The position numbers and the translations under genes are program-made. 29,957 nucleotides of DNA from assembly GCA_043822065.1 (NCBI GenBank), contig JBDRCC010000013.1, positions 1 through 29,957 on the forward strand, in the 5' to 3' direction. This DNA is from JBDRCC01 sp043822065 [NCBI: archaeon]. GTDB lineage: Archaea > Undinarchaeota > CAZHTU01. The notes beneath the pieces are model-generated. The model saw only the letters and a list, made by a program, of their open reading frames with translations, did not search any database and was not told the origin of the DNA. The first letter of the stretch is position 1. Each line of letters begins with the position of its first letter. This document shows, in pieces, positions 2,188-17,909 of this stretch.

Positions 2188-3338
2188 AAAAGACGCTGAT
2201 AATCTGGCTGGACGCAGTATCGCCCGACTTGATTCAGGGCAACATGCCGTTTTTGGAGAAGCTGAGGTCCGGTTCCGAGTTCCGAAGGTTTAAGACGCAC
2301 CTTGGGTTCTCGACCAGCCTTGGCGCTACGTTTTTTACGGGGGTTACTCCGGATCGGCACAACCAGTTTTTCCTGTTCAAGAGAGGAAGCAACTGGACGT
2401 ACCGACACTTTTGGTGGATGCCGCAGATGTTCATGGATGGGCTAAACAACATTGTCCGGCTCTTGGAGGGAAAGTCTTATTTCTACATGGCTCCAAAGGG
2501 AATTCCGCGACGACTCTTGAAGTTCTTTAGCGGCTCGGTGGACGAAAACTACTGCGCTCCAGGCTCCCTGCCGGTTCCGACGCTTTTTGACAAGCTGAGG
2601 GAGAAAGGGCGGAGGTTTGTGTACCTGAAGTGGCCGGTTTTCGGCACGGAGGAGAGGACGACGCTCACGTTCTCTAAAAACAGCGACGAAAGGCGGGCGA
2701 TGTCCCTGATTTCGACTTTCTCGGATGAAGTCGACCTCTATTTTGCGTATTTCGTTGACATGGATGTAAAGGGCCACCTAATAAAGGGGGATAATGAGTA
2801 CCTTTCCGAGCTGACGGAGGAAGACAGGAGAATACGGCAGGTGGTTTCTGAGTTCCGGGGCAGGTTCCCTGACTCCAACGTGATAATATGGGCAGACCAT
2901 GGCATGGTGCGGGTTAAGGAGAGGGTCGACATTATGTCTAAGCTCAATGCCCTGGCACCAGGAGCTGTCCTGGGCAGCAATTACCTTTGCTTCCTTGACG
3001 CCACGGTCGCTAGGTTCTGGTTCATGGACAAGAAGTCGGAAAAGCTTGTAAAGGGTGTGCTTTCCGGAATAAAAGAAGGAAAAATCCTTAGCCAAATGGA
3101 GCTTAAAAAATTTGGGGTCCCTGCCGATGATGCATATGGGCAATTATACTTCTTATTGAAGCCGGGCTATTTGGTGCACCCTAACTATTTTACAGGGAAG
3201 CGGGAGCTTTACAGGATGCACGGCTATTCGCCTGAAACTAAAGAGATGGAAGGGTTCTTTTTATACAGCGGCAGGGCGAAATGCCCGAAAATGAAAGACC
3301 TTAAGGACTGCTACAAGTTTCTGCTTAGGCTGCTTTAG
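2184..3338 (+). CDS. Alkaline phosphatase superfamily protein (type I phosphodiesterase/nucleotide pyrophosphatase-like)
   Basis: The 384-residue protein shows the metal-site order of the type I phosphodiesterase/nucleotide pyrophosphatase family. Asp10 lies in IIWLDAVSPD. A Ser/Thr cluster at 43-45 in GFSTS sits upstream of FFTGVTPDRH, with Ser43 at the usual spacing for the nucleophile. Further ligands are Asp194 and His198 (DMDVKGH), Asp238-His239 (WADHGM) and His346 (RMHGYSPE, followed by EMEGFFLYSG). All expected ligands are present, so it should be an active two-metal phosphoesterase or phosphotransferase. I see no signal peptide or membrane helix; the substrate may be a cytosolic nucleotide-activated or phosphodiester intermediate. 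It overlaps the nucleotidyltransferase by 4 bp and its end overlaps the convergent rSAM gene by 14 bp. An NTase that adds and a phosphodiesterase that removes or transfers a phospho-group is an attractive but unproven pairing. Confidence 0.88.
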   Translation: MKKTLIIWLDAVSPDLIQGNMPFLEKLRSGSEFRRFKTHLGFSTSLGATFFTGVTPDRHNQFFLFKRGSNWTYRHFWWMPQMFMDGLNNIVRLLEGKSYFYMAPKGIPRRLLKFFSGSVDENYCAPGSLPVPTLFDKLREKGRRFVYLKWPVFGTEERTTLTFSKNSDERRAMSLISTFSDEVDLYFAYFVDMDVKGHLIKGDNEYLSELTEEDRRIRQVVSEFRGRFPDSNVIIWADHGMVRVKERVDIMSKLNALAPGAVLGSNYLCFLDATVARFWFMDKKSEKLVKGVLSGIKEGKILSQMELKKFGVPADDAYGQLYFLLKPGYLVHPNYFTGKRELYRMHGYSPETKEMEGFFLYSGRAKCPKMKDLKDCYKFLLRLL

Positions 3339-4773
3339 TCCGTCTGCGGTAGATGTACTGGATTGCCCTTATCTCAACAGGCAATGCCCAGAACTGGCGC
3401 CTCCACCTGAATTGTTCGAATTTGTGAAGCAAGTAGCCTGCATACCTAAGTAACGGATTTTTCAGGAAACCCTCCATTCTCGAGAACTGGAAAGCGAGCC
3501 TAGATATCATTGCGAGATCCTGTAAAAAGACCTTTTCCCTTTCACTTAGCCAAGGGCGCGCTATTGTGCTTGTTGGGACATACTCTGCCCACTTTTCAAG
3601 AGAATCTGGAGGGACAAAGCCATGCTCTTTACTCGTTTCATAGAGCTCGGTCCCTGGGAAGGGGGTGAATATTGCAAGTGCGACTTGGGCGTTATCGTCT
3701 ATCTCCTGAAGCTTGGTCATGAGAGATGTGGTCTCGGCCCTTTCTTCTGGAGTCTCGGTCGGGAATCCTGTCATGAAAGACAGGATTGGTGATATCCCAT
3801 ACTGCTTGCAGTATTGGACTGATTTAACTATTTGCTCAACTTTTGTGTCTTTTTTAACAAAATCTAGAATTCTCTGCGAACCGGACTCCGCGCCGAGAAA
3901 CACTGCAGTACACTTGGAATCCCGCATCTTGTTGAGGAAGTCTTCTTTTAACCTAGACATCAAATCGGGCCTTATGTCGGCTTCCCATCCGATGCCCTGG
4001 TCCTGGAGTGTCTTGATTATGTCCTCGCTTCTCAGGAGGTTCACAAAAAAGTTGTCGTCCCAGAAGATAATCTTCCCGATTTTCGTCTCCTTGCGAATAG
4101 CATCTAGTTCCTCTACGAATCTTTCAGCACTCATCGCACGCCAGGAGCGCTTATTGAATTCGCAGTTGTAGCAGTAAGTACACCTAAACGGGCAGCCCCT
4201 GGACGTCTGCATTGCGATAACGCTGCCAGACTTCTCTGAAACGTATTTTTTGAAGTCTATTAAGTCCCAGGGAAGTATGTCGAGCTCGTCTGAAGGGAGG
4301 AACGCCCGTTGCCGGTTCAGTATTAGTTTCTTGCCTTTTGAGTACCCTACACCATCAACGTTCTTTGGCTCCTCGCCCTTTTCGATTTTTCTAACAAGTT
4401 CTAGGAACGTCTGCTCACCTTCACCAACGACGACATAATCAACATACTCATGCTCAAGGGTTTGTTTTGGAAGGAGGGATGGATGGACTCCCCCCCAAAC
4501 AATGGGTATGTTCGGGTTCTCTTCCCTGACTGCTTTTGCTATCCGGATTCCGTGCGATATCTGCGTCCCCGTCATTGCAGAGATGCCAATTACAGTACCG
4601 TTCTTTGAAGAGGCGAGTACTTTCTCCAGGTACTTATCTTCAACCCTGGTATCAACCATCTCAACCGAGTATCCCTCATTTATTACTGGCGATGCAACGG
4701 CCATGATTGAAAGTGGCTGCCTTGCAAACTCGTCCATTCCAGTTTTGGGATAGACTAGGGTTATGTCACTCAT
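3325..4773 (-). CDS. B12-binding-domain radical SAM protein (1 of 4)
   Basis: The 482-residue product starts at MSDITLVYPK. ATG 4773 is preceded by GGTGAT, a good archaeal Shine-Dalgarno match, four bases upstream; a longer in-frame start at 4812 would lie deep in the upstream gene. Residues 1 to about 150 form a cobalamin-binding-like Rossmann domain (IVWGGVHPSLLP near 91-102, VVVGEGEQTF near 114-123). The rSAM core follows, with SRGCPFRCTYCYNC giving Cys194, Cys198 and Cys201 for the 4Fe-4S cluster. The WDDNFF and FLGAESGSQ blocks are typical of the B4-type family (BchE/class B methylase-like). No DxHxxG motif is seen, as in many members. Possible roles are methylation of an unactivated carbon or another radical rearrangement on a glycan or lipid; the substrate cannot be read from sequence. 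It overlaps the upstream flippase-like gene by 8 bp, so the two are probably co-transcribed. Confidence 0.9.
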   Translation of the reverse strand: MSDITLVYPKTGMDEFARQPLSIMAVASPVINEGYSVEMVDTRVEDKYLEKVLASSKNGTVIGISAMTGTQISHGIRIAKAVREENPNIPIVWGGVHPSLLPKQTLEHEYVDYVVVGEGEQTFLELVRKIEKGEEPKNVDGVGYSKGKKLILNRQRAFLPSDELDILPWDLIDFKKYVSEKSGSVIAMQTSRGCPFRCTYCYNCEFNKRSWRAMSAERFVEELDAIRKETKIGKIIFWDDNFFVNLLRSEDIIKTLQDQGIGWEADIRPDLMSRLKEDFLNKMRDSKCTAVFLGAESGSQRILDFVKKDTKVEQIVKSVQYCKQYGISPILSFMTGFPTETPEERAETTSLMTKLQEIDDNAQVALAIFTPFPGTELYETSKEHGFVPPDSLEKWAEYVPTSTIARPWLSEREKVFLQDLAMISRLAFQFSRMEGFLKNPLLRYAGYLLHKFEQFRWRRQFWALPVEIRAIQYIYRRRTKAA

Positions 4774-5704
4774 TTTTATCACCAAGGAGCTTGAAAGTGA
4801 AGAGCACGCCAACGAGAGCCGGGAATATGGCCAGTGTGAAATAAGAGACTATTGAGAATGAAACAGTTGCGGCAGGTGGGATAGCATAGATGGAATAGAT
4901 GAAAACCAGCGTTGCCTCCCGCGTGCCAAAGCCTGCGATGGTTATTGGTATTAGCCCGACCAGACTGGCAATGGGCGTTGCTGTTATGAAAAAGAGATAG
5001 GGAAGTTCGATAGAGAACGCATGTGCCACTATGTAACCCTGAGTGTAGACGGTGACGTAGTAGAGAAGTGAGAGCAGGAAAACAGGGAGAACGTCCGAGA
5101 TCTTCGGCAGATTTTTGTAGAATGACTCAAAGGACGCTTTAGCCATTTCCTTGTAGGACGCTGGAACAAAGTGATGATAAAATACCCTAAGGATTGGTTT
5201 TGAGTATCTTTGCTCCATCAGGATAAAGAAGCCAGTGACGAGGCCAAGGAACAGGAAGATTACCAGATAGAGGAATCCTGCAAAGTAGTTTATCAGCAGT
5301 AGGAGTCCTATCGTGCCGAAGCTGCACAGCGCAATCAAGTCAAGGAGGCGGTCAATGATAACGCTCGAACTGCACTCCGGCATCGTTTTTCCGGTTGCTT
5401 TCTGGAGATAGGGTATCTTTACCAGGCTGCCGAGTTTCGCAGGACTTATGTTACCATAAAAAAGGCCAATAAGCTGGATTTGGGCAAGGTGCCAGAAGCT
5501 AACTGATATGCCCTGCTTTTTCAGGAGAAAGTTCCACTTGTAAGTCATTACCAGAATGGCAGGTATGGAAAGGCATAATGCGTAAAGAATGTACTCTACC
5601 TTAGAGGCAAGGACAGTTGCCATTAGCTGAGCAGGCCCTATGGACCAGACTATATAGGCAAGTAGTATGAGGCCTACTGGAAGGAACAGCCGGATAAGCT
5701 TCAT
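4766..5704 (-). CDS. UPF0104/AglD-like polytopic membrane protein (LPG synthase TM / flippase-like domain)
   Basis: The 312-residue protein has about eight hydrophobic helices and the signatures of the COG0392/PF03706 family. These are a loop with GNISPAKLGSLVKIPYL (usual form PGxxGExxR), SSVIIDRLLDLIAL (usual xxVxxERxxDxxAL), and near the C-terminus GFGTREATLVFIYSI. Relatives include the membrane domain of lysylphosphatidylglycerol synthase and haloarchaeal AglD; members are often found beside glycosyltransferases and are proposed to act on lipid-linked sugars or as flippases. Here it lacks any attached GT2 or aminoacyl domain, so it is the stand-alone form. ATG 5704 sits about 24-25 bp downstream of a TATTTAAA box, indicating a leaderless transcript. 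It is the first gene of a two-gene unit with the rSAM protein. Exact activity is unknown. Confidence 0.85.
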   Translation of the reverse strand: MKLIRLFLPVGLILLAYIVWSIGPAQLMATVLASKVEYILYALCLSIPAILVMTYKWNFLLKKQGISVSFWHLAQIQLIGLFYGNISPAKLGSLVKIPYLQKATGKTMPECSSSVIIDRLLDLIALCSFGTIGLLLLINYFAGFLYLVIFLFLGLVTGFFILMEQRYSKPILRVFYHHFVPASYKEMAKASFESFYKNLPKISDVLPVFLLSLLYYVTVYTQGYIVAHAFSIELPYLFFITATPIASLVGLIPITIAGFGTREATLVFIYSIYAIPPAATVSFSIVSYFTLAIFPALVGVLFTFKLLGDKNE

Positions 5705-5820: not shown

Positions 5821-7206
5821 ATGCCCAGCAAGATTGCACTTGTTTGTGTCAGGCCAAAGGAGGAAGCGAGGGGCACGTCTATGCCTCCCCTTGGCATCGC
5901 ATATTTAGGTACTATTCTGGCAGCTAAGGGATATACTACGAAACTCTTGGACCAGTGTTTTAATGATTCTCAGGAATTGTTTGAAAAATTAAAGAAGTTC
6001 AACCCAGATGTCATCGGCGTAAGCTGCATGAGTCCCTTTTATCCAGAAGCTGTCAAAATACTTGATTTCGCAAAAAAGATTGGAGCCGTTACGATCATTG
6101 GAGGACCGCACATAACGGTAAAGCCGGAGGATATCCTTGTCGACAAGTCTGCGGATTTTGCCGTGATTGGAGAGGGGGAAGAGACAATTCTTGATCTGCT
6201 CGAGAATCTTGATAATCCTGAAAAAGTGAAGGGAATCGCATTCCGCAATGGGGACAAACTGCACATTGCGCCTCCGCGTGAGCCAATCGCAGACATCGAT
6301 GGCATACTCCACCCGGATTTTGATTTGCTGGACGATCTGAATCAGTATTTAAAGAGTAACGAACTCCCGCTACTGTCATCCCGAGGCTGTGCATTTCGGT
6401 GTAGTTTCTGCCAGCCAGCCACATCTAAGATATGGGGGAAGACGGTGCGGTTCAGATCCCCGTCTGACGTCGCGGATGAAATTCAGTCCCTGATGGAAAA
6501 ATACAACATCAAGCATTTTACCTTTGTGGATGACAACCTGACACTAAGAAAGGACACACTTGAAGAATTTTGTAATAAAATTGAACAATTCGAGATTACG
6601 TTTTCGGTGAATTCCAGGGTTGACACGCTAAATGAGGAAAAAATAAAACTACTAAAGAAGGCAGGATGCATCGGCATAAGTTTTGGTGTCGAGTCTGGGA
6701 GCCAAAAAATATTGGATACGCTCCGTAAAGGAATAACCATTGAACAGATAAAAAATACTTTCGCGCTCTGCAAGAAATACAAGATGCCGACCAAGGCATA
6801 TATCATGCTTGGGAGTCCTGGGGAAAGTCATGATACCTTGCGAAGAACTGAGGAGTTATTAAAAGAGATAAAGCCGAACAGCGTTTCTTTTTCTATTACG
6901 ACCCCCGTGTTTGGATCATATCTATACGACGAGGCAAAATCAGAGGGAAGTTTAGCAAGTATTAGCTATAAATCCCATGACTACCGAGGGGAAGCCCATA
7001 AATTTCAAACTGAGACCCCAATAAAGCTCGAAAACCTCACACTTAATGATTTAATACAGTTCAGAGAAAGAATCATAAGGAAGCGGAGAAAGGCATACTT
7101 ATTCAGGGGAATGTTGAAGGTATTAAAAAACTTTATTCGAAGACCTTCAGTATCGTATCTTAAGGATAGGTGGAGAGAGTATCATCAGCTCAAATACATG
7201 GGATAA
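5821..7206 (+). CDS. B12-binding-domain radical SAM protein (2 of 4)
   Basis: The product is 461 residues. The N-terminal Rossmann domain covers about 1-150, with PPLGIAYLGTIL near 22-32, IIGGPHITVKPEDIL near 92-106 and FAVIGEGEETI near 113-123. A CxxxCxxC cluster follows in SSRGCAFRCSFCQPA (Cys190, Cys194, Cys197), then FVDDNLT and FGVESGSQKILD. This is the standard class B (cobalamin-domain) layout; no DxHxxG is seen. The C-terminus ends in a basic helical tail (RKRRKAYLFRG and beyond). ATG 5821 follows a TATA box by about 27 bp. It is distinct from its three neighbours in the post-cluster residues (CQPA here, against CYNC, CHNH and CYKS), which hints at different substrates. Function is likely methylation or other radical chemistry on a glycan or lipid precursor; substrate unknown. 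Confidence 0.9.
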   Translation: MPSKIALVCVRPKEEARGTSMPPLGIAYLGTILAAKGYTTKLLDQCFNDSQELFEKLKKFNPDVIGVSCMSPFYPEAVKILDFAKKIGAVTIIGGPHITVKPEDILVDKSADFAVIGEGEETILDLLENLDNPEKVKGIAFRNGDKLHIAPPREPIADIDGILHPDFDLLDDLNQYLKSNELPLLSSRGCAFRCSFCQPATSKIWGKTVRFRSPSDVADEIQSLMEKYNIKHFTFVDDNLTLRKDTLEEFCNKIEQFEITFSVNSRVDTLNEEKIKLLKKAGCIGISFGVESGSQKILDTLRKGITIEQIKNTFALCKKYKMPTKAYIMLGSPGESHDTLRRTEELLKEIKPNSVSFSITTPVFGSYLYDEAKSEGSLASISYKSHDYRGEAHKFQTETPIKLENLTLNDLIQFRERIIRKRRKAYLFRGMLKVLKNFIRRPSVSYLKDRWREYHQLKYMG

Positions 7207-7211
7207 GCGTA

Positions 7212-7301
7212 ATGGCAGAGACCTGTAAGCCGTATAAAACGTCAACACATAAAGTTTATGAGGCGATAAAAGAAATAGGTAAAGACGAATATGAGAGTTA
7301 G
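7212..7301 (+). CDS. Possible 29-residue small ORF between two rSAM genes
   Basis: An ATG at 7212, six bases after the upstream stop, opens a 29-codon frame. It ends at TAG 7299-7301 and overlaps the start of the next rSAM gene by 11 bp. The peptide is hydrophilic and helix-prone (for example KVYEAIKEIGKDEYES). No clear ribosome binding site is visible and no family is recognised. It could be a coupling leader ORF, a gene remnant, or chance: A-rich promoter DNA readily gives such frames. Confidence 0.2.
   Translation: MAETCKPYKTSTHKVYEAIKEIGKDEYES
7263..7271 (+). promoter_or_regulatory. Candidate TATA-like element for rSAM gene 3
   Basis: GCGATAAAA is centred about 23-24 bp upstream of ATG 7291. 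A second candidate, GTATAAAAC, lies at 7232-7240. An AGGT at 7277-7280 could instead act as a weak ribosome binding site 10 bp before the ATG, so independent initiation is only a possibility. Confidence 0.3.
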
Positions 7302-8706
7302 CTTTCTACAGAACATGGGCATTGACCAGTTTGGAGTCATGTATATCTCTGCAATGCTCAAGGGGCAGGGGCACAAATGCGAGGCTTTTATCGATGGAGT
7401 GGAGAAAAATTTCATGGATGTGGTCGTCAAAAGCAAGCCGGACGTTATAGCTATTTCTTCGTCAACATCTGAGCATAAGTGGCTTAGAAGAACAGTTGCA
7501 ACTGTAAAAGAGCAGTTAGATGTGCCAATCATCGTCGGAGGGCCGCATGCAACATTCTATCCTGATATTTTAGAAAAAGACAAAAACATCGATGCAATCT
7601 GCATCGGGGAAGGTGACGAGGCAGCAGTAGAGATATTCGATAGGTGGGAGTCTGGCAAAGACGCCACTAAAGTCAGGAACATGTGGGTGCGGAAAGACGG
7701 AAAGATGCACCATAACCCTGTGCGCAAGTTAAACGAAGACCTTGACTCGCTGCCGTTTCCAGACAGGGAGATATACTATAGCAAATACAAGTATATGCGC
7801 AATGTTAGTATAAAGAAATTTCTTGCCGGCCGTGGCTGCCCCTATGACTGTTCCTACTGTCATAATCATCAGGAAAAGGACCTGTACAAGGGACACGGGA
7901 AGTATGTGCGCTACCGTTCAGTAAGCAATGTAATCGAGGAAATCAAGGACGTGGAAAAAAAGTATGGCATGAAGCGCCTTACGTTTTCCGATGACACGTT
8001 TATCATCAACCGAAAATGGCTGGAGGAATTTCTGTCCGAATACAAAAAAGAAGTCGGAATCCCATTCAATTGCAACGTTCGCGCGAATCTTATTGATGAG
8101 GACCTTGTCAAGAAGCTGAAAGATGCTAACTGCGTCAGTGTCGCCATGGGCACTGAATCAGGAAATGAGGAGCTGCGCGACAGAGTCCTATGCAAGCACA
8201 TAACAAACGCGCAGATACTGGATTCGTGCAGGCTCTTCAGAAAATATGGAATTAAGTATAAGAGCTTTAACATGATGTGCCTCCCAGACGAGACCATAGA
8301 GCAGGGTTGGGATACCGTAAGGTTAAACGCACAGATGAAGGCAGACATGGCCACCTGCCTGATACTTCAGCCATACCCGAGGCTCGCCATCACAAATTAT
8401 GCCATCTCGAAGGGTTACCTGCCGAAAAACTACAACGTTGAATTCCTGGACGAGCTTAAGCATTCATACGCAGTGATTGACTCTCCGGATAAAAAACTGC
8501 TGGAGAACCTTTCAGCTTTCGTGATGATTTGTGCAAAGCACCCGTCCCTTATCCCGTTTGTCAGGCCGCTGATAAAGCTCCCCCCAAACAAGCTTTTCAA
8601 ACTTTTCTCCAATGTGACATATGCGTATTACACCCTGAAGATGTACGAACTGGGCATGCGTGAGGTAGTTGAATACGCCCTGAACTCGCGCTATCGCACT
8701 CAATAG
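7291..8706 (+). CDS. B12-binding-domain radical SAM protein (3 of 4)
   Basis: The 471-residue product has an N-terminal cobalamin-type Rossmann domain of about 150 residues, with IIVGGPHATFYPDIL near 80-94 and AICIGEGDEAAVEI near 102-115. The cluster motif is AGRGCPYDCSYCHNH with Cys183, Cys187 and Cys190, followed by FSDDTFIIN and VAMGTESGNEEL in the TIM-barrel part. The C-terminal 130 residues are mostly helical (PPNKLFKLFSNVTYAYYTL). No DxHxxG B12 ligand motif is apparent. It follows rSAM gene 2 on the same strand after 84 bp. The organism therefore encodes two adjacent, non-identical rSAM enzymes here, which suggests successive steps or alternative substrates. Methylation or C-C bond chemistry on a surface glycan or lipid is an inference from the neighbourhood. 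Confidence 0.9.
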   Translation: MRVSFLQNMGIDQFGVMYISAMLKGQGHKCEAFIDGVEKNFMDVVVKSKPDVIAISSSTSEHKWLRRTVATVKEQLDVPIIVGGPHATFYPDILEKDKNIDAICIGEGDEAAVEIFDRWESGKDATKVRNMWVRKDGKMHHNPVRKLNEDLDSLPFPDREIYYSKYKYMRNVSIKKFLAGRGCPYDCSYCHNHQEKDLYKGHGKYVRYRSVSNVIEEIKDVEKKYGMKRLTFSDDTFIINRKWLEEFLSEYKKEVGIPFNCNVRANLIDEDLVKKLKDANCVSVAMGTESGNEELRDRVLCKHITNAQILDSCRLFRKYGIKYKSFNMMCLPDETIEQGWDTVRLNAQMKADMATCLILQPYPRLAITNYAISKGYLPKNYNVEFLDELKHSYAVIDSPDKKLLENLSAFVMICAKHPSLIPFVRPLIKLPPNKLFKLFSNVTYAYYTLKMYELGMREVVEYALNSRYRTQ

Positions 8707-8767: not shown

Positions 8768-9226
8768 ATGAATTTTGATTTTAGGAGGCTTGTGAGGAAT
8801 CCCCTGTTCTGGATTTTAGTCCTTGCCCTCGCCTTTCGGCTGGTAAACATAAACGCCCCGTTTACTGGGCACCACGGATGGAAAGAAGTGCAAATCAGCG
8901 GAATGGCCGCAAGGTTTTTGGACGAGGGCAGCTGGCTTGTACCCAGGAATTTCCAGGCAAGCCCGCAGAGCGGCCCGCTCCCGCTTGCAGCGTGGATAAT
9001 AGCAGGCTTCTGGATGGTATTCGGAATTGCTGAATGGTCAGCAAGGCTCCCCATGATGTTCATGGGCGTCGCGTCAGTTTACTTTATCTATCTCCTTGGG
9101 AAAGAGGTTTACTCGGAAAGGGCAGGCCGTTATTCAGCGCTATTCCTCGCAGTTTCCCCCATGGCAGCGTATTTTTCAAGGATAACTGCAGAGATATCGA
9201 TTGTGACGCTCTGCACAATCCTGTAG
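8768..9226 (+). CDS. GT39/PMT-like membrane glycosyltransferase, N-terminal part (ends at in-frame TAG)
   Basis: This 152-codon stretch encodes the first part of a polytopic glycosyltransferase. It contains a first membrane helix (FWILVLALAFRLV), then the first outer loop NAPFTGHHGWKEVQISGMA, where archaeal/bacterial GT39-like (dolichyl-phosphate-sugar dependent) proteins carry their catalytic and substrate residues. Further helices follow, up to YSALFLAVSPMAAYFSRITAEI. The frame stops at TAG 9224-9226 but is open again in the same phase beyond a TGA at 9245-9247. So the stretch at 9296-10237 is the continuation of the same gene, not a separate one. Alone, this fragment would lack most of the membrane domain and all of the C-terminal domain. 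Probably a pseudogene, unless the two stops are sequencing errors or are read through. Confidence 0.75.
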   Translation: MNFDFRRLVRNPLFWILVLALAFRLVNINAPFTGHHGWKEVQISGMAARFLDEGSWLVPRNFQASPQSGPLPLAAWIIAGFWMVFGIAEWSARLPMMFMGVASVYFIYLLGKEVYSERAGRYSALFLAVSPMAAYFSRITAEISIVTLCTIL

Positions 9227-9247: not shown

Positions 9248-9295
9248 ATACGGGATAACAGCAGGCAGGCAGGCCTGGCATCGGCCTTTTTCCTC

Positions 9296-10237: not shown

Positions 10238-10941
10238 TTTCTGCTGAGATCTCAACAATCTGGAGGTACCAGGCAACTGAGAAAATAAAGAGGCTGCCAC
10301 GAAAGCTGAAGACGTTGGAGGTAGGCTGCGGCTCTGCGCCCTATTCGGAATTGTTCAAGGACTACACCGGATGTGACATTGACGGGGGCAGGTTCCCGAA
10401 GAAGGGGAAGTTCGCAGTCTGTGACGCGAGGGACATGAAGTTCAAGGACAATGAGTTTGAGTTCATACTCTGCTATGCCCTGCTAGAGCACGTGGCGGAG
10501 CCGGAAAGGATAGTTTCAGAGATGCACAGGGTTTTGAAGAAGGGAGGACGGGCATTTTTGACCTGCACCGCAAGGACTGGCTCTTATTTTGAAGTTTATC
10601 CGGTGCTTAACAAGTATTCCGGAAAGGGCTTTAAGAAGCTTGTTGAGGCGCCAGGCTTCAGGGTGGAGGAGTTCGGAACGCTGTGCGGTGGCTCGATAGC
10701 CTACCTGTTCGAGCTTGTCGATTTCACCATATTCAAGCTCCTGCTGAAGTTTGCCCCATCGCTGGTCCCGAAAAAGATTAGAGACCAGTTCAAGCTTGAG
10801 AGGCTTTCGAAACAGGAACTGAAGCGGGAGTACGGCGGAGTAATGGGCGCAAGGGCGGACCTGGTTAAAATCCTGTACAGGATAGAGTCAAAAATCCCTA
10901 CGCTAGTCCCAGTAACGTACTACGCCGTTGTAGTGAAGTGA
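10234..10941 (+). CDS. Class I SAM-dependent methyltransferase (Methyltransf_11 type)
   Basis: The 235-residue protein has a good motif I, LEVGCGSAPYSELF (28-41), and an acidic residue pair at CDIDGG (47-52). Next come CDARDMKFKDNEFEFILCYALLEH and then EMHRVLKKGGRAFLTC, the classic order of the Methyltransf_11 fold. The C-terminal 90 residues are helix-rich and basic and may recognise the acceptor. It starts at an ATGA overlap with the GT39-like reading frame and ends exactly where the convergent GT2 gene ends (10941/10942), with no spacer. Likely role: O-methylation of a sugar hydroxyl or a lipid carrier, inferred from the surrounding glycosyltransferases. If the GT39 gene is dead, its expression must rely on reinitiation or on readthrough across the stops. 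Confidence 0.88.
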   Translation: MISAEISTIWRYQATEKIKRLPRKLKTLEVGCGSAPYSELFKDYTGCDIDGGRFPKKGKFAVCDARDMKFKDNEFEFILCYALLEHVAEPERIVSEMHRVLKKGGRAFLTCTARTGSYFEVYPVLNKYSGKGFKKLVEAPGFRVEEFGTLCGGSIAYLFELVDFTIFKLLLKFAPSLVPKKIRDQFKLERLSKQELKREYGGVMGARADLVKILYRIESKIPTLVPVTYYAVVVK

Positions 10942-11844
10942 CTACTTCTCCTGGATTTCCTTTCTTAGGTAGGTTATAGAGTCTGCCAGAACCCCAAACA
11001 GGAATATCTGGAGGCCGGAAAGCATCAGCAGCACGCTGAACAGCAGAAGCGGCCTTCCGCCTATTGCCTGCCCGAGGAAGAACTTCTCATACAACAGGTA
11101 GACTCCAAACAGGAAACCCAAGCCGCCGATTACGCCGCTTACGATGGTATAAAAGACCACCGGAGAGTCGTCAAACTTCAGCCTGAATTTTAGCATCGCG
11201 AGGGTGAGAAACCCGATAAGGAGGCGGGTAATTCCGTACTTCGATTTTCCGTGCGCCCGGGGGTGGTGGTTTATTTTCACTTCCCCGACGGAGTAGCCCA
11301 TTTCAGACGCGAGGATTAGCAGGTTCCTGTGCTCGTCCTTCCTAAGGTTCATCCGGTCGGTGACCGCCCTCCGGAATGCCTTCATCCCGCAGTTAAAGTC
11401 GTGGACTTTTATCCCAAACAGGAAACGGGCGAGCCGGTTGTAGAGGTAGGAGGAGAATTTCTTTCCCATGGGGTCCTTCCTGTCCGCCCGCCAGCCGTTG
11501 ACCACGTCATATTTTTTCAGCAGGCTTATGAACTTTGGAATGTCCTCTGGGTCCTGCTGGAGGTCGGCATCAATGAACAGGACATAGTCCCCTTTTGCCG
11601 CCCGAAATCCCTTCGTGAGGGCTGCGGATTTCCCGATGTTTGTTTTGTTGGCCAGCACCCTAACGCCCCGATGCTTGGATGCGAGCTCCTTTGCGAGCGG
11701 GAGAGTCCGGTCGGTTGAGCCGTCGTCTACGAGTATTACCTCTCCGGAAAGGCCGGCTTTCTTGAAAACTGCAAGGAGTCTGCTGGTTATCTCCTGGATT
11801 GTATGCTCCTCATTGTATGCCGGAACTATGGCTGAAAGCTGCAT
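10942..11844 (-). CDS. DPM1/GtrB-like polyprenol-phosphate glycosyltransferase (GT2 with two C-terminal membrane helices)
   Basis: The 300-residue product begins MQLSAIVPAYNEE and has VDDGST (39-44), then FIDADLQQDPEDI (90-102) with the DxD at 92-94, and HDFNCGMKAFRR (148-159). An HGKSKYG basic loop (198-204) is followed by two membrane helices at about 232-252 and 266-290. This is the layout of polyprenol-phosphate mannose/glucose synthases (DPM1, GtrB), which load one sugar from a nucleotide donor onto a lipid phosphate on the cytosolic face. The lipid-linked sugar could be the donor for the GT39-type proteins nearby. The start is ATG 11844; longer frames reach 12150 but run inside the upstream gene. 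A TATA-like box 27 bp upstream supports independent, leaderless expression. Confidence 0.93.
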   Translation of the reverse strand: MQLSAIVPAYNEEHTIQEITSRLLAVFKKAGLSGEVILVDDGSTDRTLPLAKELASKHRGVRVLANKTNIGKSAALTKGFRAAKGDYVLFIDADLQQDPEDIPKFISLLKKYDVVNGWRADRKDPMGKKFSSYLYNRLARFLFGIKVHDFNCGMKAFRRAVTDRMNLRKDEHRNLLILASEMGYSVGEVKINHHPRAHGKSKYGITRLLIGFLTLAMLKFRLKFDDSPVVFYTIVSGVIGGLGFLFGVYLLYEKFFLGQAIGGRPLLLFSVLLMLSGLQIFLFGVLADSITYLRKEIQEK

Positions 11845-11866: not shown

Positions 11867-11875
11867 TTTTTAATA
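11867..11875 (-). promoter_or_regulatory. TATA box for the DPM-like GT2, overlapping the 3' end of the fusion gene
   Basis: The minus strand reads TATTAAAAA, centred about 27 bp upstream of ATG 11844. It includes the stop codon (11870-11872) of the upstream nitroreductase-methyltransferase gene. The DPM-like gene thus seems to have its own promoter inside the operon. Confidence 0.55.
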
Positions 11876-13165
11876 CTTGTGCCCTTCGACCACGGCAATG
11901 CTTCTGGGGAACAGGAACCGGGTCGCATGGGAGGCTGCAATAATGAGCCCCTTGTTTTCCACCGGCTTTCTGTGCAGGAATGACGTCCCTCCAGAGAGGC
12001 GGAACTGCCTGAACAGCGCCCAGTAGTCCTTGAAGACTGGTGGGATGAAGAACGCGGATTTTTGTCTTGCCTTGAAGCCTTCAAGCTTGATTGAATTGAG
12101 TGGCTTGTATGGGCCAAAGAAGTAGTACACCGCCGTCCGGGAGATATCATCCCCGCGGACTAACCGCAGAAGTGTGTAAAAAGTGCCGTAGAGCGAAAAT
12201 GCTTTCCGGTAGGCAATAAAAAGCCTGCCATTTTTTTTCAGGACCCGCCGGCACTCGGAGATTACTGCCTTGCGCTCTTTGGAGGGAATCCGCTCGAGCT
12301 TCAGGAGAATTGTGACTGCGTCAAAGGAGCCGTCCTTGAATGGAAACTTGGGGGTTTTGGAGACCTTCCTTGAAATCTTCCTGCCTGCAGCTGCCTGGGT
12401 GTATTCAGATGACTGGACTGAAAGGTCAAGTGAGGTGAGCTGGCACCCATTGGGAAAACAGCTTAGGAGGCTCCCGTCGTAGGAATACACATCAAGAACG
12501 CTTCCGCGCAAGGAAGCCAGCTGGCTAGCGATAAAATCGCGTTCCAGTGGGTTTGTGACCATCATGGGGGTTCCAGGGGACGTCTTCCTTGAGACTAAGT
12601 CCTGGTGGCGGGCGATGCCGTCGAGCGACCAGGAGTCCGGGTTGTGCTTCCGGCTTCCCCCGTCATGTGAAAACCGGTTCAGGCTGAGTATCTGCTTCAC
12701 GTCAGCCCGGCGCGGAGCCGTGGGCATTTCGGCGGAGTAGCCGAGGAGTACAAGGCACACCAGGTAAAAGTCCTTTGGCGCATTCAGTATCTTATCAATG
12801 CGCTTCCGGTTTCCAACGGATGCAACCCACAGGGAGCCAATGCCCTCAGCCTCTGCCGCGAGGATGAGGTTCTGGACTGCGGCGGACGCACTTTCTATGA
12901 AGTCAGGGTAGTTCCCCTTTTTGTAATAGACTGCGATGACATGGGGGGCGCTGCGGACTATGGTTGAGGTTCCTGCCTCGTCCACCATCCTGCTGACTAT
13001 TTTCTTGTCGTCAATTACGACAAATTTCCATGCCTGCTCGTTGCAGGCGGAAGGTGCCCACTGGGCGGCGCCAATAAGCTTTTCGATTTTCTGCATCGGG
13101 ACCTTCTGCGGCGTGAACTTCCTTGTGCTTCTGCGCCCCTTGAGTGTCTTCCAAAACTCAGGCAC
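11870..13165 (-). CDS. Nitroreductase-methyltransferase-like fusion protein
   Basis: The single 431-codon frame joins two domains. Residues 1 to about 165 are a nitroreductase-family flavoprotein: RRSTRKF at 11-17 and AQWAPSACNEQAWKFVVI at 34-51 are FMN-site motifs, AAEAEGIGSLWV at 103-114 is conserved, and VCLVLLGYSAEMP follows. Residues about 215-325 look like a class I methyltransferase core: SVLDVYSYDGSLLSCFP, FPFKDGSFDAVTILLKLERIP, ECRRVLKKNGRLFIAYRKAF. Its motif I is VLDVYSYDGS instead of DxGxGxG, so SAM binding is doubtful. GTG 13165 is the start: GGAGGT lies 8 bases upstream, and the frame overlaps the upstream gene by 8 bp. The stop is TAA 11870-11872. A flavin-dependent reduction or desaturation coupled to methylation of a sugar or lipid is possible. 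I know of no named family with this fusion. Confidence 0.85.
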   Translation of the reverse strand: MPEFWKTLKGRRSTRKFTPQKVPMQKIEKLIGAAQWAPSACNEQAWKFVVIDDKKIVSRMVDEAGTSTIVRSAPHVIAVYYKKGNYPDFIESASAAVQNLILAAEAEGIGSLWVASVGNRKRIDKILNAPKDFYLVCLVLLGYSAEMPTAPRRADVKQILSLNRFSHDGGSRKHNPDSWSLDGIARHQDLVSRKTSPGTPMMVTNPLERDFIASQLASLRGSVLDVYSYDGSLLSCFPNGCQLTSLDLSVQSSEYTQAAAGRKISRKVSKTPKFPFKDGSFDAVTILLKLERIPSKERKAVISECRRVLKKNGRLFIAYRKAFSLYGTFYTLLRLVRGDDISRTAVYYFFGPYKPLNSIKLEGFKARQKSAFFIPPVFKDYWALFRQFRLSGGTSFLHRKPVENKGLIIAASHATRFLFPRSIAVVEGHKY

Positions 13166-14768
13166 TTATGGATACCTCCAGCTTCTCTGCCTTGATGTCC
13201 AGCCGCTTCTCGACAACGACCTTTCCGGAATTCAGCTTACTAGATAGGTTTTCCATTGGAAGCTCCGCCGAGAGCTCCTCCTTCAGGAAGTACTTGCTTG
13301 AAGGTATAAAGCTAACGGAAAACTTGTCAGACATGTAGAGCTTGGAGAGGGGATGCTTGCCACTGTTTCGCAGGGTGTCCCGTACCACCAGGACGTCACC
13401 CGGCACGATTTCCCGCGTGAGAGTGACCCCTGCGCGCCGTGACTTTGTTATCAGCATCCGCCGGAAGGCCGCTTTCACTGCCTTCTTCGAAGGAGAGAGC
13501 ATATTAAGCTTCATCGCCGCGCGCAAAGCAAGGACATTAGAGGTCTTAGGCAGTGGATAGCTCTGGTAGAAAAGGCTCGTATCCGTCTTTACTGAATTGC
13601 CAGCCTCGGTTTTGGCGCACTCGTCAAGGACGGATGAGCCAATCCGCTTCCCGCTTTTCAGCGCCCCGTAGTACCCGCAGTCAGAGAGAAGGAGCTTTGC
13701 CGGCTTCTTCTTGTAGACCTTCAGCGAGCCCTTTTTAGCGCTGTATATGAGGTAGGCGTTCTTTGAGGAGTGGACGTAAAGCCCGGATGAGCTGAAGTAT
13801 TTTGTGAACTGGGTGGAGTGCGGCAGGGGGGGCGGGTTCAGCTTTCCGGCATCGGAGTACGCCTGCAAGTAGGTGTATAGATTGTAAGCCAGATACCGGT
13901 CATCAATGTTGAGGCCTTCGGAGGATAATGATTTGCGGATGCTACTGGAGATTGCTGCTGCAGGAGGGTGTTTTTTTGCGAGAATTTCGAAGCCGTGTGG
14001 GATTAGGTATTCGGTGTTCCTGGAGCCATATTCCCCGCCTGCCGAGCCGGTCGGGTGGATAAAGTAGCGTATAAAGTCAACGGCTCTGGAGAGGGAGTTT
14101 AAGAGCCGGCCATCTCCGCTCTCCTTGTAGTACTTTGACAGGTAGTCAATAGCGAGGCTCAGGTATCCGATGTCCGCACCGCCATATTCGCTGAACCAGC
14201 CCTCCTTGTCTTGTTTGGAGAGCAGGGCGCCAATCTTTGATTTCGAGAGCTCTGCGTACTTTTCCTCGCCGAGCGCAGCGGAAGCCTTCAGAAGGGCGAG
14301 CGCGGCGCCGCATTCCTGGTTCGTTGCCTGGAACTCCCCATACGTGGAGATGAATTTTGCGGATTTAGCTATTGCATTAAGTGTGGCGTCGTCCGGTTTG
14401 ACGCCAAGGAGGCGGATGGATTCGCAGACGGCATACAGCGAAAAAGCGGTGGCGACGTAGCTGCCCTCGTTAGGATACCATTCGTTGAAGGAGCCGTCCC
14501 GGTTTTGTATGCCTGACCAAAAGGATATTCCGCCATTTGCGAGGCCGAGAATCTTTTCGCTTCTGTACCCTGCGTTTGGGGTTTTGTAGAGCAGCGCAAG
14601 AGTGAGCACTGCCTCCTGCATCCTTGAGCAGGGAAAGTCAACGACGCGGTAGTGCCAGTACTGCCTGTCAAAGCAGCCGTATGTCGGCGAGTTGGGGTTC
14701 CGGTCAGCAAGTCCCAAGAGCCGCGGCGCCTGCGAGAGAGCGGTACGCAGGTATACTTTAGAGTCCAT
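13158..14768 (-). CDS. Predicted alpha/alpha-toroid protein, heparinase- or cyclase-like; function unknown
   Basis: The 536-residue protein begins MDSKVYLRTALSQAP. ATG 14768 is placed about 25 bp after a TATA box; a longer frame to 14876 lies in the preceding gene. Residues about 25-280 show paired helices with recurrent aromatic/Gly/Asp motifs: YGCFDRQYWHY 30-40, NRDGSFNEWYPNEGS 89-103, EYGGADIGYLS 194-204, GEYGSRNTEYLIPHG 245-259. These resemble (alpha/alpha)n toroids of polysaccharide lyases (heparinase II/III, alginate lyase) or glucuronyl epimerase/terpene-cyclase-like folds. The C-terminal third is beta-rich (VTLTREIVPGDVLVVRDTL), as in lyases with a beta-sandwich. No signal peptide or membrane helix is seen, so it likely acts inside the cell, perhaps epimerising or trimming a lipid-linked glycan. 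It overlaps the fusion gene by 8 bp. The family assignment is by resemblance only. Confidence 0.8.
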   Translation of the reverse strand: MDSKVYLRTALSQAPRLLGLADRNPNSPTYGCFDRQYWHYRVVDFPCSRMQEAVLTLALLYKTPNAGYRSEKILGLANGGISFWSGIQNRDGSFNEWYPNEGSYVATAFSLYAVCESIRLLGVKPDDATLNAIAKSAKFISTYGEFQATNQECGAALALLKASAALGEEKYAELSKSKIGALLSKQDKEGWFSEYGGADIGYLSLAIDYLSKYYKESGDGRLLNSLSRAVDFIRYFIHPTGSAGGEYGSRNTEYLIPHGFEILAKKHPPAAAISSSIRKSLSSEGLNIDDRYLAYNLYTYLQAYSDAGKLNPPPLPHSTQFTKYFSSSGLYVHSSKNAYLIYSAKKGSLKVYKKKPAKLLLSDCGYYGALKSGKRIGSSVLDECAKTEAGNSVKTDTSLFYQSYPLPKTSNVLALRAAMKLNMLSPSKKAVKAAFRRMLITKSRRAGVTLTREIVPGDVLVVRDTLRNSGKHPLSKLYMSDKFSVSFIPSSKYFLKEELSAELPMENLSSKLNSGKVVVEKRLDIKAEKLEVSISA

Positions 14769-14788
14769 AGCAGGAAAATAGGCGCGAC

Positions 14789-14796: not shown

Positions 14797-14799
14797 AGG

Positions 14800-16479
14800 T
14801 TATCCGGTGAATTCGTAGACGCGGTAGCTGTAAGGGGCGCCCTCGAAGGTCCTAAGGTGTTTGAAGGCAGGGCCAACCGGCTCTTCCCGCAGGGTTATGA
14901 GCAGCCGGACGTCATTCTCCCTTGCTTTCACGAGCACCGTGTCATAATACGGCTCCTCGGTGCTGTCCTGGGTAAAAACCGTCCTCTCGCCGTAGAGCCC
15001 CCCCTGAACCAGGTAGTATTGCAGCTGGCTTGGCATGTCGCAGAGGATGTTGCCGTCAGTGTATGTCCCTGCAAACTGTGCGATTTCACTCCAGGGTTCT
15101 TCGAACCTCGCAGACCATGCGTAGCTGGCTATGTATTTTTCAGACGGGAGGTGGACAACGCCGAAGAGCACAGTAAACGCAAGGAGGGCATTCAGAACGG
15201 TCACGACAACGAGCAGCTTGTGGAACTGCGGCTTGTAATTGTCGCTCAGGACTTTCAAGAGATAAACTGTGAGGGGGATTACCGCAAACAAGACATACCG
15301 CACTGCTGGAACGTTTACCATTAGCATGTAGAGCACGAGCCACCCGATGCCCAGGGTTAGCGGGGTCATCCTGTCGAATTTCGTCCTGTTTTTTGCGTCG
15401 AGGTAGATGGCGAGGAGTAGGGGGATACAAGCAAAGCCGATGTCAAAAGCCAGACCCACCGGTTGGGGGTAATGCATAAGAAAAGAGGTCTCTGCACCCT
15501 GCAGACCCTTGGACCAAAAGAATGTGAAGTAGGGGACCTTGTAGAGCGCTAAGTAGCTCCACGGGAATACCAAGAGAAGGAAGCCAAGGAGCGTAACGGA
15601 AGCCTGGCGTATCGCCCGAAACATGCCTGTCTTGTATCCATGCCAAAGGACTATGATTGCGATTGGGGCACCGATTATTCCAACGTCATACTTCGTCAGG
15701 AAGCCTAAAGCCAGCGGGATTGAAAGGAGTAGCCAGTTGTCGTATGATGGGCTCCTAAGGGTTCTAAGAAGCTGGTACATGGAAAGTGTTAGGAAGAAAG
15801 TCAGCGGGATGTCAAGCATCGGCCGTCCGGACCAGTAGTAGACGGCTGGCAGGAAATATGCGAAAAGGGGCGTCAGTTTTAGAATTTCCTTGCGCACGCC
15901 ATAAAGCTTGCAAGTGTAATAGACTACAATAGAAATGCCAACGCCGCAGGCGAATGGAAAAAGCCGGGAAGTAATGGGGTTGACCCCAAAGGCGTAGAAC
16001 AGCCCGCTCCCCACAGAGTAAACGGGGGGAAACTTGAGAAAAGCTGCGGCAAAAACGCCTTTGTGGTGCGACACCAGGTACTGCAGTGCCTGGCTTATGT
16101 GGGGCATGGAGGAGAGGATTTTCATGAAAAAGTATCCGGCTAATGCGTGGATTCCCTCATCAATTTCGGATATGCCATGCATGAAGTTTGGCAGCTCGAG
16201 CAAAAAGGCGATCGGCAGGACTGTGACTAAAAGCTCTTTCAGTTCGATGAGATTGAGCTTTAGCTTAGTGGTTCGCTCATTCCAGTCTATTAGGAAGTAT
16301 ACTAAGGACAGCCCTACCAGCTCGACAACACCTATGACCAAAGAGTCAGTGAGCGTAAACCTGACTGCCCAGGTGCTGTATTCGCTATAATTGAACTCGC
16401 TGCCCGCTATCAGGAGGGAAAACGCAAAGCTGACGAATCCCATAACGGCTATGAAGGTAAGGGCTTTTTTCGTTTTCAT
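14800..16479 (-). CDS. GT39/PMT-like polytopic membrane glycosyltransferase
   Basis: The 559-residue protein has about 12 hydrophobic segments and a C-terminal soluble tail of roughly 110 residues. In the first large outer loop, ISEIDEGIHALAGYFFMK carries the Asp107-Glu108 pair expected for the catalytic site of GT39/ArnT/PMT-type enzymes. After a membrane segment, FLPAVYYWSGRPMLDIPLTFFLTLS shows the typical 'D.PL..F' pattern. These enzymes use polyprenyl-phosphate sugars as donors on the outer membrane face. The DPM-like GT2 in the same gene run could supply that donor. The start overlaps the upstream rSAM gene by ATGA (16476-16479). The gene is intact, in contrast to the GT39-like gene at 8768-10237. 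The acceptor is unknown; it could be a lipid-linked glycan, glycolipid or protein. Confidence 0.88.
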   Translation of the reverse strand: MKTKKALTFIAVMGFVSFAFSLLIAGSEFNYSEYSTWAVRFTLTDSLVIGVVELVGLSLVYFLIDWNERTTKLKLNLIELKELLVTVLPIAFLLELPNFMHGISEIDEGIHALAGYFFMKILSSMPHISQALQYLVSHHKGVFAAAFLKFPPVYSVGSGLFYAFGVNPITSRLFPFACGVGISIVVYYTCKLYGVRKEILKLTPLFAYFLPAVYYWSGRPMLDIPLTFFLTLSMYQLLRTLRSPSYDNWLLLSIPLALGFLTKYDVGIIGAPIAIIVLWHGYKTGMFRAIRQASVTLLGFLLLVFPWSYLALYKVPYFTFFWSKGLQGAETSFLMHYPQPVGLAFDIGFACIPLLLAIYLDAKNRTKFDRMTPLTLGIGWLVLYMLMVNVPAVRYVLFAVIPLTVYLLKVLSDNYKPQFHKLLVVVTVLNALLAFTVLFGVVHLPSEKYIASYAWSARFEEPWSEIAQFAGTYTDGNILCDMPSQLQYYLVQGGLYGERTVFTQDSTEEPYYDTVLVKARENDVRLLITLREEPVGPAFKHLRTFEGAPYSYRVYEFTG

Positions 16480-17909
16480 TTTAGGACGACATGCAGGCCT
16501 TTTCGGACTATGCGGACAAATGAGTGCGGGCGCCGGAGAGTCTCCCGCAGAACCTTGGATATCAGGATGGGATTCAGATAGAAGAGCTTTCCGTACTTCT
16601 TTTCGTAGAGGCTGCGGCGGAGGTAGGCGTCAAGGTCCATGGAGTGCATGAAGCCCTTGTCGAGGTCGTTCCCCACTAGCCCGGCATATTCTCTTGCACC
16701 TTCCCACCACGGGCGTTTAGCTTTGTTCTCCTTTTGGGCGAGCAGGTATAGCTGCGTGTTTGGATATGGAATGGCAAGGGTGAATCCGAAGCTTTCTGCA
16801 ATTTCAGTCTCCGCTAGGAAAGCTATTGAGTTTTCTATTGAACCCATCGTTTCGCCGGGCAAACCAAGCAGGAAAAATGCGTATGGCGTGATCCCTGAAT
16901 TTTTTGTTATTTTAAAGGCGTTTTTTGCCTGTTTAAGGGTTATGCCTTTTTTAGTCATGTCCAAAACGCGCTGGTCGCCGCTCTCGAGGCCGTAGTAGAT
17001 ATACTCGCAGCCGGCGGACTTCATTTTCCCAAGCAGTTCCTCGTCGACGCTCGTTACCCGGCACGTACATCCCCACCTGAGCTTCAATGGAGCGATGAGA
17101 TGGCATATCTCAATAGCCCGCTTTTTGTTTAGTACAAATTCAAGGTCGCCGAAGTAAAATGACTTGAGCCCGTATTCTTCCTTGAGCATTTTCAGCTCCT
17201 CGAAAACGGAGGACGGCTTTCTATAGCGGTAGCCTGAGCCGTAGAATGACTTGTAGCAGAAGGTGCACCGGAACGGGCAGCCCCGGCTCGAGAGGAGCCT
17301 GACAAAAGGCGTTGACTTTAGCATAGCGTCACCGTACAACTCCATCCGGAGGAGGTGATATGCCGGGCAGGGGAGGGAATTGATATCCCGTATGAGGGGG
17401 CGCTCTGGATTATGGCGTATTTTCTTGCCGCGGAAGCTTAAGCCCTTTATGTTGTCAACGCGCTTGCCAGTATTTAAGGCAACCACCAGCTCTTTGATTG
17501 TCATCTCCGGCTCGTTTCGGACAATGTATTTTACTTGTGGAAACTTGCTAAAGAAGTACTCCGGTTCTGTAGTGGGGTGCGGGCCCATAAGGCAGACTGA
17601 CTTGAAGAGCCGTATGGTGTCCTCGACCGGCTTGATGTCGAGATAGGGGCACTGCCACCTGTCGAACGGGGCAGAGCTTATGACGATGAGGTCGGCGGAG
17701 GATTCTGTGACTTTTTTCTTTAGCTCATCGAGGCTTAGCCTCTCTGCATTTGCGTCGATTATGGAAACTGCATGCCCCTCCTTTTCGAGAATTGCCGCTG
17801 GGTAGGCTAGGTCGAGCGGGGGGACGACGCGGTTTGGAAAGACCAGGTTGACGTTAATCTTGTTTGCGTATGGGTACTCATATGCAGGGTTGATGAGGCA
17901 GACTCTCAT
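16476..17909 (-). CDS. B12-binding-domain radical SAM protein (4 of 4)
   Basis: The 477-residue product starts MRVCLINPAYEYPY. It has a cobalamin-type Rossmann domain of about 150 residues (VPPLDLAYPAAILEKEGHAV near 29-48, VCLMGPHPTTEPEYF near 105-119, YIVRNEPEMTIKEL near 128-141). Next is SSRGCPFRCTFCYKS with Cys211, Cys215 and Cys218. FGDLEFVLN and IYYGLESGDQRVLD follow, then a helical C-terminus of about 100 residues. Where the sisters have GEGE, this one has RNEPE (131-135), so the loop differs. No DxHxxG is apparent. It overlaps both neighbours by 4 bp (flippase upstream, GT39-type downstream), so it is firmly part of a glycan-export operon. Methylation or rearrangement of a lipid-linked sugar is a reasonable but unproven role. 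Confidence 0.9.
   Translation of the reverse strand: MRVCLINPAYEYPYANKINVNLVFPNRVVPPLDLAYPAAILEKEGHAVSIIDANAERLSLDELKKKVTESSADLIVISSAPFDRWQCPYLDIKPVEDTIRLFKSVCLMGPHPTTEPEYFFSKFPQVKYIVRNEPEMTIKELVVALNTGKRVDNIKGLSFRGKKIRHNPERPLIRDINSLPCPAYHLLRMELYGDAMLKSTPFVRLLSSRGCPFRCTFCYKSFYGSGYRYRKPSSVFEELKMLKEEYGLKSFYFGDLEFVLNKKRAIEICHLIAPLKLRWGCTCRVTSVDEELLGKMKSAGCEYIYYGLESGDQRVLDMTKKGITLKQAKNAFKITKNSGITPYAFFLLGLPGETMGSIENSIAFLAETEIAESFGFTLAIPYPNTQLYLLAQKENKAKRPWWEGAREYAGLVGNDLDKGFMHSMDLDAYLRRSLYEKKYGKLFYLNPILISKVLRETLRRPHSFVRIVRKGLHVVLK

What the first reader, a model, noticed from the sequence alone, without database searches (positions are those of the whole stretch)
3325..17909. Four different B12-type radical SAM proteins inside one glycan locus
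Four complete proteins (3325-4773, 5821-7206, 7291-8706, 16476-17909) each show a cobalamin-type N-terminal domain and a CxxxCxxC cluster, but differ in the residues after the last Cys (CYNC, CQPA, CHNH, CYKS) and in surrounding loops. They are interleaved with flippases, GT39/GT2 enzymes, methyltransferases and a nitroreductase fusion. Class B rSAM enzymes methylate unactivated carbons or make ring and C-C bonds. Four in a surface-glycan or lipid island suggest a multi-step, oxygen-sensitive tailoring of a sugar or membrane lipid that I cannot match to a described pathway. Two are cotranscribed with membrane transport proteins (UPF0104-like and Wzx-like).
Basis: partly seen in the sequence, partly recalled or inferred. 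Interest (0 to 1): 0.68.

Follow-up and report, generated by a model that had tools for sequence, protein, structure and literature searches.

The report
Radical enzymes in archaeal glycan island
A stretch of archaeal DNA holds four distantly related vitamin-B12-type radical enzymes among sugar-coat genes, a pattern that recurs in other small-genome archaea and suggests that they chemically remodel their surface sugars in ways not yet tested.

Summary
All four ORFs are intact at the stated coordinates, have B12-binding and radical SAM domains over Pfam cut-offs and a CX3CX2C motif, and are 26-33% identical. They are not one local duplication (AU p 1.5e-15), and none passes a curated NCBIfam cut-off. 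The window is archaeal; its genome is not held and its phylum stays open. There they cluster (70 of 128 within 15 kb of another, 12 expected) in islands rich in glycosyltransferases (55 of 239 neighbours against 0 of 202 control ORFs). The ten best hits of R2 and of R4 (16 distinct genes) are all linked; R1 (10 of 14) and R3 (4 of 6) are mixed. The flippase pairing is not above chance. Best reading: oxygen-sensitive sugar tailoring, most likely C-methylation, of glycan precursors; no substrate is shown. A puzzle: none of the 87 genomes has a FecCD/BtuC-type importer, so the cobalamin source, or its use at all, is open.

The parts
3325..4773 (-). R1, B12-type radical SAM protein (482 aa), CX3CX2C-YNC
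   Evidence: supported clade of 9 rows with homologs of five genomes
4766..5704 (-). TIGR00374/PF03706 flippase-like membrane protein, overlaps R1
5821..7206 (+). R2, B12-type radical SAM protein (461 aa), CX3CX2C-QPA
7291..8706 (+). R3, B12-type radical SAM protein (471 aa), CX3CX2C-HNH with a longer loop shared by its clade
8768..10237 (+). PMT-type glycosyltransferase gene interrupted in frame by TAG (9224) and TGA (9245)
10234..10941 (+). class I methyltransferase
10942..11841 (-). GT2 glycosyltransferase, nearest models of the polyprenyl-phosphate-sugar type but below their cut-offs
11870..13165 (-). nitroreductase-methyltransferase fusion
13158..14777 (-). unnamed protein (CYC), no Pfam match; homologs in two other B12-rSAM islands
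14800..16479 (-). PMT/GT39-type membrane glycosyltransferase, overlaps R4
16476..17909 (-). R4, B12-type radical SAM protein (477 aa), CX3CX2C-YKS; weak B12 domain score
17906..19444 (-). Wzx/MOP-type flippase, overlaps R4
19479..20462 (+). GT2 glycosyltransferase
21988..23085 (+). glycosyltransferase, GT4-like (my reading of the sequence, not scanned against a family library)
   Evidence: homologs in islands
23072..24163 (-). glycosyltransferase, GT4-like (my reading of the sequence, not scanned against a family library)
   Evidence: homologs in islands
24156..26573 (-). AglB/STT3-type oligosaccharyltransferase, below the curated cut-off of its only matching model
   Evidence: TIGR04154, 128.1 bits, cut-off 450

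Best explanation
R1-R4 are four separate enzymes of the class-1 cobalamin-type radical SAM kind that tailor sugar units of an archaeal surface glycan. Each would cleave SAM at its 4Fe-4S cluster, take a hydrogen from a sugar carbon of a nucleotide- or lipid-linked intermediate with the 5'-deoxyadenosyl radical and, most likely, deliver a methyl group from methylcobalamin, giving C-methyl-branched sugars. The glycan would then be flipped by the Wzx-type or TIGR00374-type protein and extended or transferred by the PMT-type and AglB-type enzymes. Shown: domains, motif, fold of R4, separate ancestry, and glycan-island linkage of most best relatives. Inferred: glycan target, methylation, order of steps, cobalamin use.
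For: B12-binding and radical SAM domains over cut-off in 4 of 4. The R4 model matches OxsB, MgmA, AprD4, CysS, TsrM and TokK at Z of about 20-24, with MiaB next at 17.5. Non-rSAM ORFs around relatives: 55 of 239 GT-like and 15 of 239 methyltransferase-like against 0 of 202 in control regions of the same genomes. Linkage of best hits: 10 of 10 (R2), 10 of 10 (R4), 10 of 14 (R1), 4 of 6 (R3). Two kinds of rSAM gene recur together in islands of three genomes at 62-77% identity, side by side in two of them. Class I methyltransferases are next to rSAM genes more than shuffling gives (17 against 9.8, p 0.007 before correction for eleven classes). Methylation is the commonest reaction of this subclass (PMC13142503, passages read), and GenK and GenD1 methylate sugar carbons in gentamicin (PMC5461906, passages read).
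Against: No substrate, no product. An R1 relative in G050 (PCNA, primase) and R3 relatives in G070 and G072 (peptidase S51; FtsZ, TBP) lie outside glycan loci. No importer of the FecCD/BtuC kind in any of 87 genomes. Nearest solved structures include the non-methylases OxsB and AprD4. rSAM genes are next to epimerase-like genes less than shuffling gives (5 against 10.1). One PMT-type gene of the island is broken, so part of the locus may be decaying. The profiles were trained on window and island genes, which favours the case set; the 20 case regions were chosen mostly from contigs with several rSAM hits.
Confidence: 0.42

Rival explanations
1. The four act on glycan sugars but not as methylases: they dehydrate, oxidise, epimerise or contract sugar rings, as AprD4, OxsB or HpnJ do, giving deoxysugars or carbocycles.
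For: The best solved-structure match by sequence for R3 and R4 is AprD4 (2e-16, 8e-24); the R4 fold matches OxsB and AprD4 as well as methylases; HpnJ is the best-scoring NCBIfam model of R4 (209 bits).
Against: AprD4 shows CX3CX3C in the alignments, all four have CX3CX2C; the HpnJ and AprD4 cut-offs are far off (577.6 and 500 bits).
Confidence: 0.25
2. They modify membrane lipids or the polyprenol carrier, not the sugar, as calditol synthase, GDGT ring synthase or ladderane enzymes do.
For: Radical SAM enzymes act on archaeal lipids (PMC8941075, passages read); R1 and R4 overlap genes of flippase type, one of which is in PF03706, named after the membrane region of lysylphosphatidylglycerol synthase.
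Against: Relatives keep company with glycosyltransferases. Apart from PF03706 no lipid-pathway family appeared among the window proteins that I scanned (three proteins were not scanned).
Confidence: 0.13
3. The families are general-purpose; R1 and R3 at least act on proteins, RNA or cofactors, and their place in the island is incidental.
For: R1 homolog between two PCNA genes and the primase genes; R3 homologs beside FtsZ and TBP or beside peptidase S51. MgmA, the Mcr glutamine methylase, is the best solved match of R1 and R2 (named).
Against: 10 of 14 R1 and 4 of 6 R3 best hits do have glycan genes within 8 kb, while 0 of 202 control ORFs are of these kinds.
Confidence: 0.15

Closest known systems
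Class-1 cobalamin-dependent radical SAM enzymes (OxsB, TsrM, TokK, CysS, MgmA)
   Same: N-terminal B12-type Rossmann domain, radical SAM core, CX3CX2C; fold of R4
   Different: R4 is 17-20% identical over the aligned fold; substrates of R1-R4 unknown; the residue under the cobalt position is Met (R1, R2), Ser (R3), Ala or Pro (R4) by my alignment, not Asn, Arg or Trp as in OxsB, TsrM and TokK
HpnJ (hopanoid cyclitol enzyme, TIGR03471)
   Same: Highest NCBIfam score of R4 (209 bits)
   Different: Far below the cut-off of 577.6; R4 is outside the HpnJ group in the mixture-model tree, though a FastTree run put it close
AprD4 (radical SAM sugar diol dehydratase)
   Same: Best solved match by sequence of R3 and R4; acts on a sugar
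   Different: CX3CX3C against CX3CX2C; scores 65-96 against cut-off 500
GenK and GenD1 (sugar C-methylases of gentamicin)
   Same: Expected chemistry (PMC5461906, passages)
   Different: No sequence comparison could be made
B12-rSAM genes in bacterial polysaccharide loci (Lawsonia and Solidesulfovibrio plasmids; TIGR04295 locus in Azospirillum)
   Same: rSAM genes between glycosyltransferases and sugar-nucleotide genes
   Different: Bacterial, one or two per stretch seen; function not given in the records

Membership tests
Class-1 cobalamin-type radical SAM protein | B12-binding domain N-terminal to a radical SAM core | tested here: met
   PF02310 and PF04055 over cut-off in 4 of 4
Class-1 cobalamin-type radical SAM protein | CX3CX2C cluster motif with an aromatic residue before the third Cys | tested here: met
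   CTYC, CSFC, CSYC, CTFC
Class-1 cobalamin-type radical SAM protein | Overall fold | tested here: met
   R4 only, 1 of 4: Z of about 20-24 to OxsB, MgmA, TsrM, CysS, TokK; model pLDDT 62.5, weak at both ends
Class-1 cobalamin-type radical SAM protein | Binds cobalamin | not testable with these tools
   GGxH signature kept in R1-R3, partly in R4
HpnJ (TIGR03471) | Curated score cut-off 577.6 | tested here: not met
   157.3, 173.5, 131.2, 209.2 bits
BchE (TIGR02026) | Curated score cut-off 481.35 | tested here: not met
   165.7, 199.3, 133.4, 158 bits
AprD4 (NF033070) | Curated cut-off 500; CX3CX3C motif | tested here: not met
   72, 65, 69.3, 96 bits; motif differs
B12_rSAM_oligo (TIGR04295) | Curated cut-off 400 | tested here: not met
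   70.6, 92.1, 68.1, 110.7 bits
Mcr glutamine methylase, MgmA (TIGR04014) | Curated cut-off 360 | tested here: not met
   120, 124, 81.3, 93.9 bits
GrsA/GrsB/Cds archaeal lipid enzymes | Clade membership with characterised enzymes | not testable with these tools
   No sequences could be obtained; S. acidocaldarius rings as a control genome for the HpnJ model, without loci
GenK/Fom3 methylases | Clade membership | not tested
   No sequences at hand

The most novel reading that the evidence does not exclude
Small-genome archaea have turned the B12-type radical SAM fold into a serotype-like toolkit of surface-sugar chemistry, up to nine such proteins per genome, and at least part of it runs without cobalamin of their own making or import: the B12-type domain would serve another role (as recalled for AprD4), or corrinoid would come from a partner cell.
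Probability: 0.17. Interest if true: 0.82.

Novelty: new variant of a known kind. Interest (0 to 1): 0.52.

Why it matters
None of the papers listed by ten searches of the held library ties B12-type radical SAM enzymes to archaeal surface glycans (the listings of 38 and 92 were cut). If the reading is right, glycans of these archaea carry sugars that the usual sugar-nucleotide pathways are not known to make, and the islands are a stock of new radical enzymes on sugars. The absence of a FecCD importer in 87 of 87 genomes makes the cofactor question directly testable.

Tried and rejected
AglB as query for genome contigs found no relative; in 21 genomes reached through TruD loci it matched in 14, weakly. 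TruD found relatives at 33-45% in several archaeal groups, so the window's phylum stays open. Gene order around TruD: 8 of 80 loci held more than two window gene types at 1e-8, none in the window's order; loci with two types were not printed, so a TruD-Pth2 pair is not judged, and four of the eight have an R2- or R4-like gene within about 10 kb. A conserved rSAM-flippase pair was tested and rejected (in one search Wzx, TIGR00374-type and PMT classes gave p 0.85, 0.19 and 0.17). Local duplication of R1-R4 rejected. A close tie of R4 to HpnJ and to L095 4291-5769 in the FastTree run was not kept by the mixture-model tree (quick search, as the careful search did not finish). Structure of the unnamed protein 13158-14777: pLDDT 37.5, not used further; its Pfam scan and those of two homologs gave nothing over a cut-off. 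Phylum of G002 with R4 alone at 1e-40: 0 of 19, without a positive control. Phages: 6 weak records for R2. Fold search with R4: families not listed there are not excluded.

Full report
What is there. By my reading of the ORF list the window carries 25 genes, the broken one counted once, among them archaeal markers: an AglB/STT3-type oligosaccharyltransferase, TruD and, by sequence only, a Pth2-type protein. No tRNA and no Rfam family was found, and no whole genome is held for it. The four proteins of the finding are intact and have both domains. None of the four reaches a curated NCBIfam cut-off, although each matches 22 or more of those models weakly, as members of this superfamily do.

Where it comes from. 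In the phylum that holds genome G010 (that of a record labelled Ca. Diapherotrites; it also holds one labelled Ca. Micrarchaeota) 79 of 87 genomes have TruD at 1e-40, at best 45% identical. So the window is archaeal and DPANN-like, but its phylum is not settled.

Four lineages, not one. In a tree of 69 proteins R1 falls with eight homologs (support 99) and R3 with three to six (96, 99); R2 and R4 have no supported partner (a quick search in place of an unfinished careful one). Holding the four together is rejected (p-AU 1.5e-15). No listed match to any of the four exceeds 40% identity.

How common. With a profile of the four (E up to 1e-40) 57 of 87 genomes of the G010 phylum have a match, 23 of 87 at least four, at most nine. 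In the phylum of G011 (Fermentimicrarchaeum), of which 146 genomes were drawn from a larger group, 10 of 146 match, at most two each. In the phylum of G004 (Altiarchaeota) 20 of 29 match, 3 of 29 with four or more and one with 13. The profile comes from the window's own proteins, which favours its kin. Of 128 listed R4 hits in genomes with two or more, 70 have another within 15 kb, 12.3 expected by random placement in unbroken genomes of the rounded sizes. With the profile 73 of 150 listed hits have such a neighbour, and 6 of 50 genomes hold three or more within 15 kb, the densest five. Both lists were cut at 150 rows by the tool.

Glycan linkage. Twenty regions chosen from rSAM hits, mostly contigs with several (295 ORFs of at least 100 aa, 334 kb), were set against 20 contig-start regions of the same 16 genomes (202 ORFs, 221 kb). 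Best-matching window glycosyltransferases: 55 of 239 non-rSAM ORFs against 0 of 202 (Fisher p 9e-17); methyltransferases 15 of 239 against 0; Wzx 5 against 0; nucleotidyltransferase 10 against 2; rSAM 56 of 295 against 0 of 202. The choice of regions bears on the rSAM count but not directly on the others. Several control regions are short because contigs are short. For the best hits of each protein, the number with at least one GT, Wzx, PMT or TIGR00374-type gene within 8 kb was 10 of the 10 best for R2, 10 of the 10 best for R4 (four genes are in both lists), 4 of the 6 best for R3 and 10 of the 14 best for R1, out of 52, about 150, 21 and 35 listed hits. The R1 misses include one contig with three ORFs (L164); several R1 hits share an island. 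The profiles were trained partly on island genes. Pfam scans confirm the Wzx labels of L091 and L095 and the PMT labels of L105 and L106.

Against it. The R1 relative of G050 lies between two PCNA genes, next to the primase genes. The R3 relatives of G070 and G072 lie near a peptidase S51 and an epimerase, and near PfkB, TBP and FtsZ. Inside islands rSAM genes are not next to flippases more than chance (6 pairs, shuffled mean 4.5, p 0.28). Over 33 regions and eleven classes they are next to methyltransferases more (17 against 9.8, p 0.007) and to one another (28 against 18.1, p 0.03), and next to epimerase-like (5 against 10.1) and unlabelled genes (37 against 51.2) less.

A recurring pair. 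Two kinds of rSAM gene stand divergently side by side in G041 (L103 7280-8632 and 8708-10120) and G053 (L104), and both occur in one island of G037 (L097) some 7.6 kb apart, at 62-77% identity among these three genomes; both also occur in G088 (L093), at 38-41% and 66-72%. Such upkeep argues for a real function.

Structure and chemistry. A model of R4 built from the four window proteins (pLDDT 62.5, pTM 0.66) matches OxsB, MgmA, AprD4, CysS, TsrM and TokK with Z of about 20-24, too close together to choose. [quoted passage not shown] By my alignment that place is Met in R1 and R2, Ser in R3, Ala or Pro in R4; this is a hint only. R4 has the weakest B12 domain (35.0 bits, cut-off 32.1) and lacks the first Gly of GGxH. 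Known non-methylases of the kind are OxsB, HpnJ, PbsB, ladderane synthase and BchE (PMC13142503, passages).

The cobalamin puzzle. PF01032 (FecCD, the permease family of BtuC) has no match in any of the 87 genomes of the G010 phylum, while 13 of 14 control genomes ring. So either corrinoid enters another way, perhaps from a partner, or some of these proteins do without it. That AprD4 lacks cobalamin is recalled, not from a call.

Elsewhere. Plasmid records show rSAM genes of this type in bacterial polysaccharide loci too: Lawsonia (two radical SAM genes among five methyltransferases and several glycosyltransferases), Solidesulfovibrio, and a TIGR04295 locus of Azospirillum. The kind is therefore not confined to archaea; its multiplication in one archaeal phylum is the new part. 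Ten paper searches listed none on B12-rSAM enzymes in archaeal glycan loci (listings only, cut in 38 and 92). Of four papers I read passages.

Verdict. Real, recurrent, and unassigned. The glycan target is likely (my estimate 0.65), C-methylation the likeliest chemistry given that (0.6), both inferred.

Noticed in passing
window 8768-10237 (+): PMT-type glycosyltransferase gene broken in frame by TAG at 9224 and TGA at 9245; the locus may be decaying or the assembly faulty.
   Followed up: yes
window 11870-13165 (-): Nitroreductase fused to a class I methyltransferase; nearest NCBIfam model is BluB, well below its cut-off (63.8 against 150).
   Followed up: partly
window 20685-21269 (+): Only the N-terminal part of an ATP-grasp protein (carbamoyl-phosphate-synthase-like) before the next gene starts.
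   Followed up: no
window 13158-14777 (-); L095 2660-4222; L098 10076-11824: Unnamed protein family without a Pfam match over cut-off, found in three B12-rSAM islands; in L095 it lies beside a fused zinc-dehydrogenase/GFO-IDH-MocA oxidoreductase.
   Followed up: partly
window 1-9000 against 10501-19500: G+C rises from 43-48% to 51-55% per 1500 bases, which may mean a mosaic island.
   Followed up: no
L109 1796-4881: A B12-rSAM gene of the R1 family stands between two PCNA genes, before the primase genes.
   Followed up: no
G053:C10:4558-5997: R1-family homolog read through two in-frame TAA codons.
   Followed up: no
G285 (phylum of G004): One Altiarchaeota-phylum genome with 13 B12-rSAM matches.
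   Followed up: no
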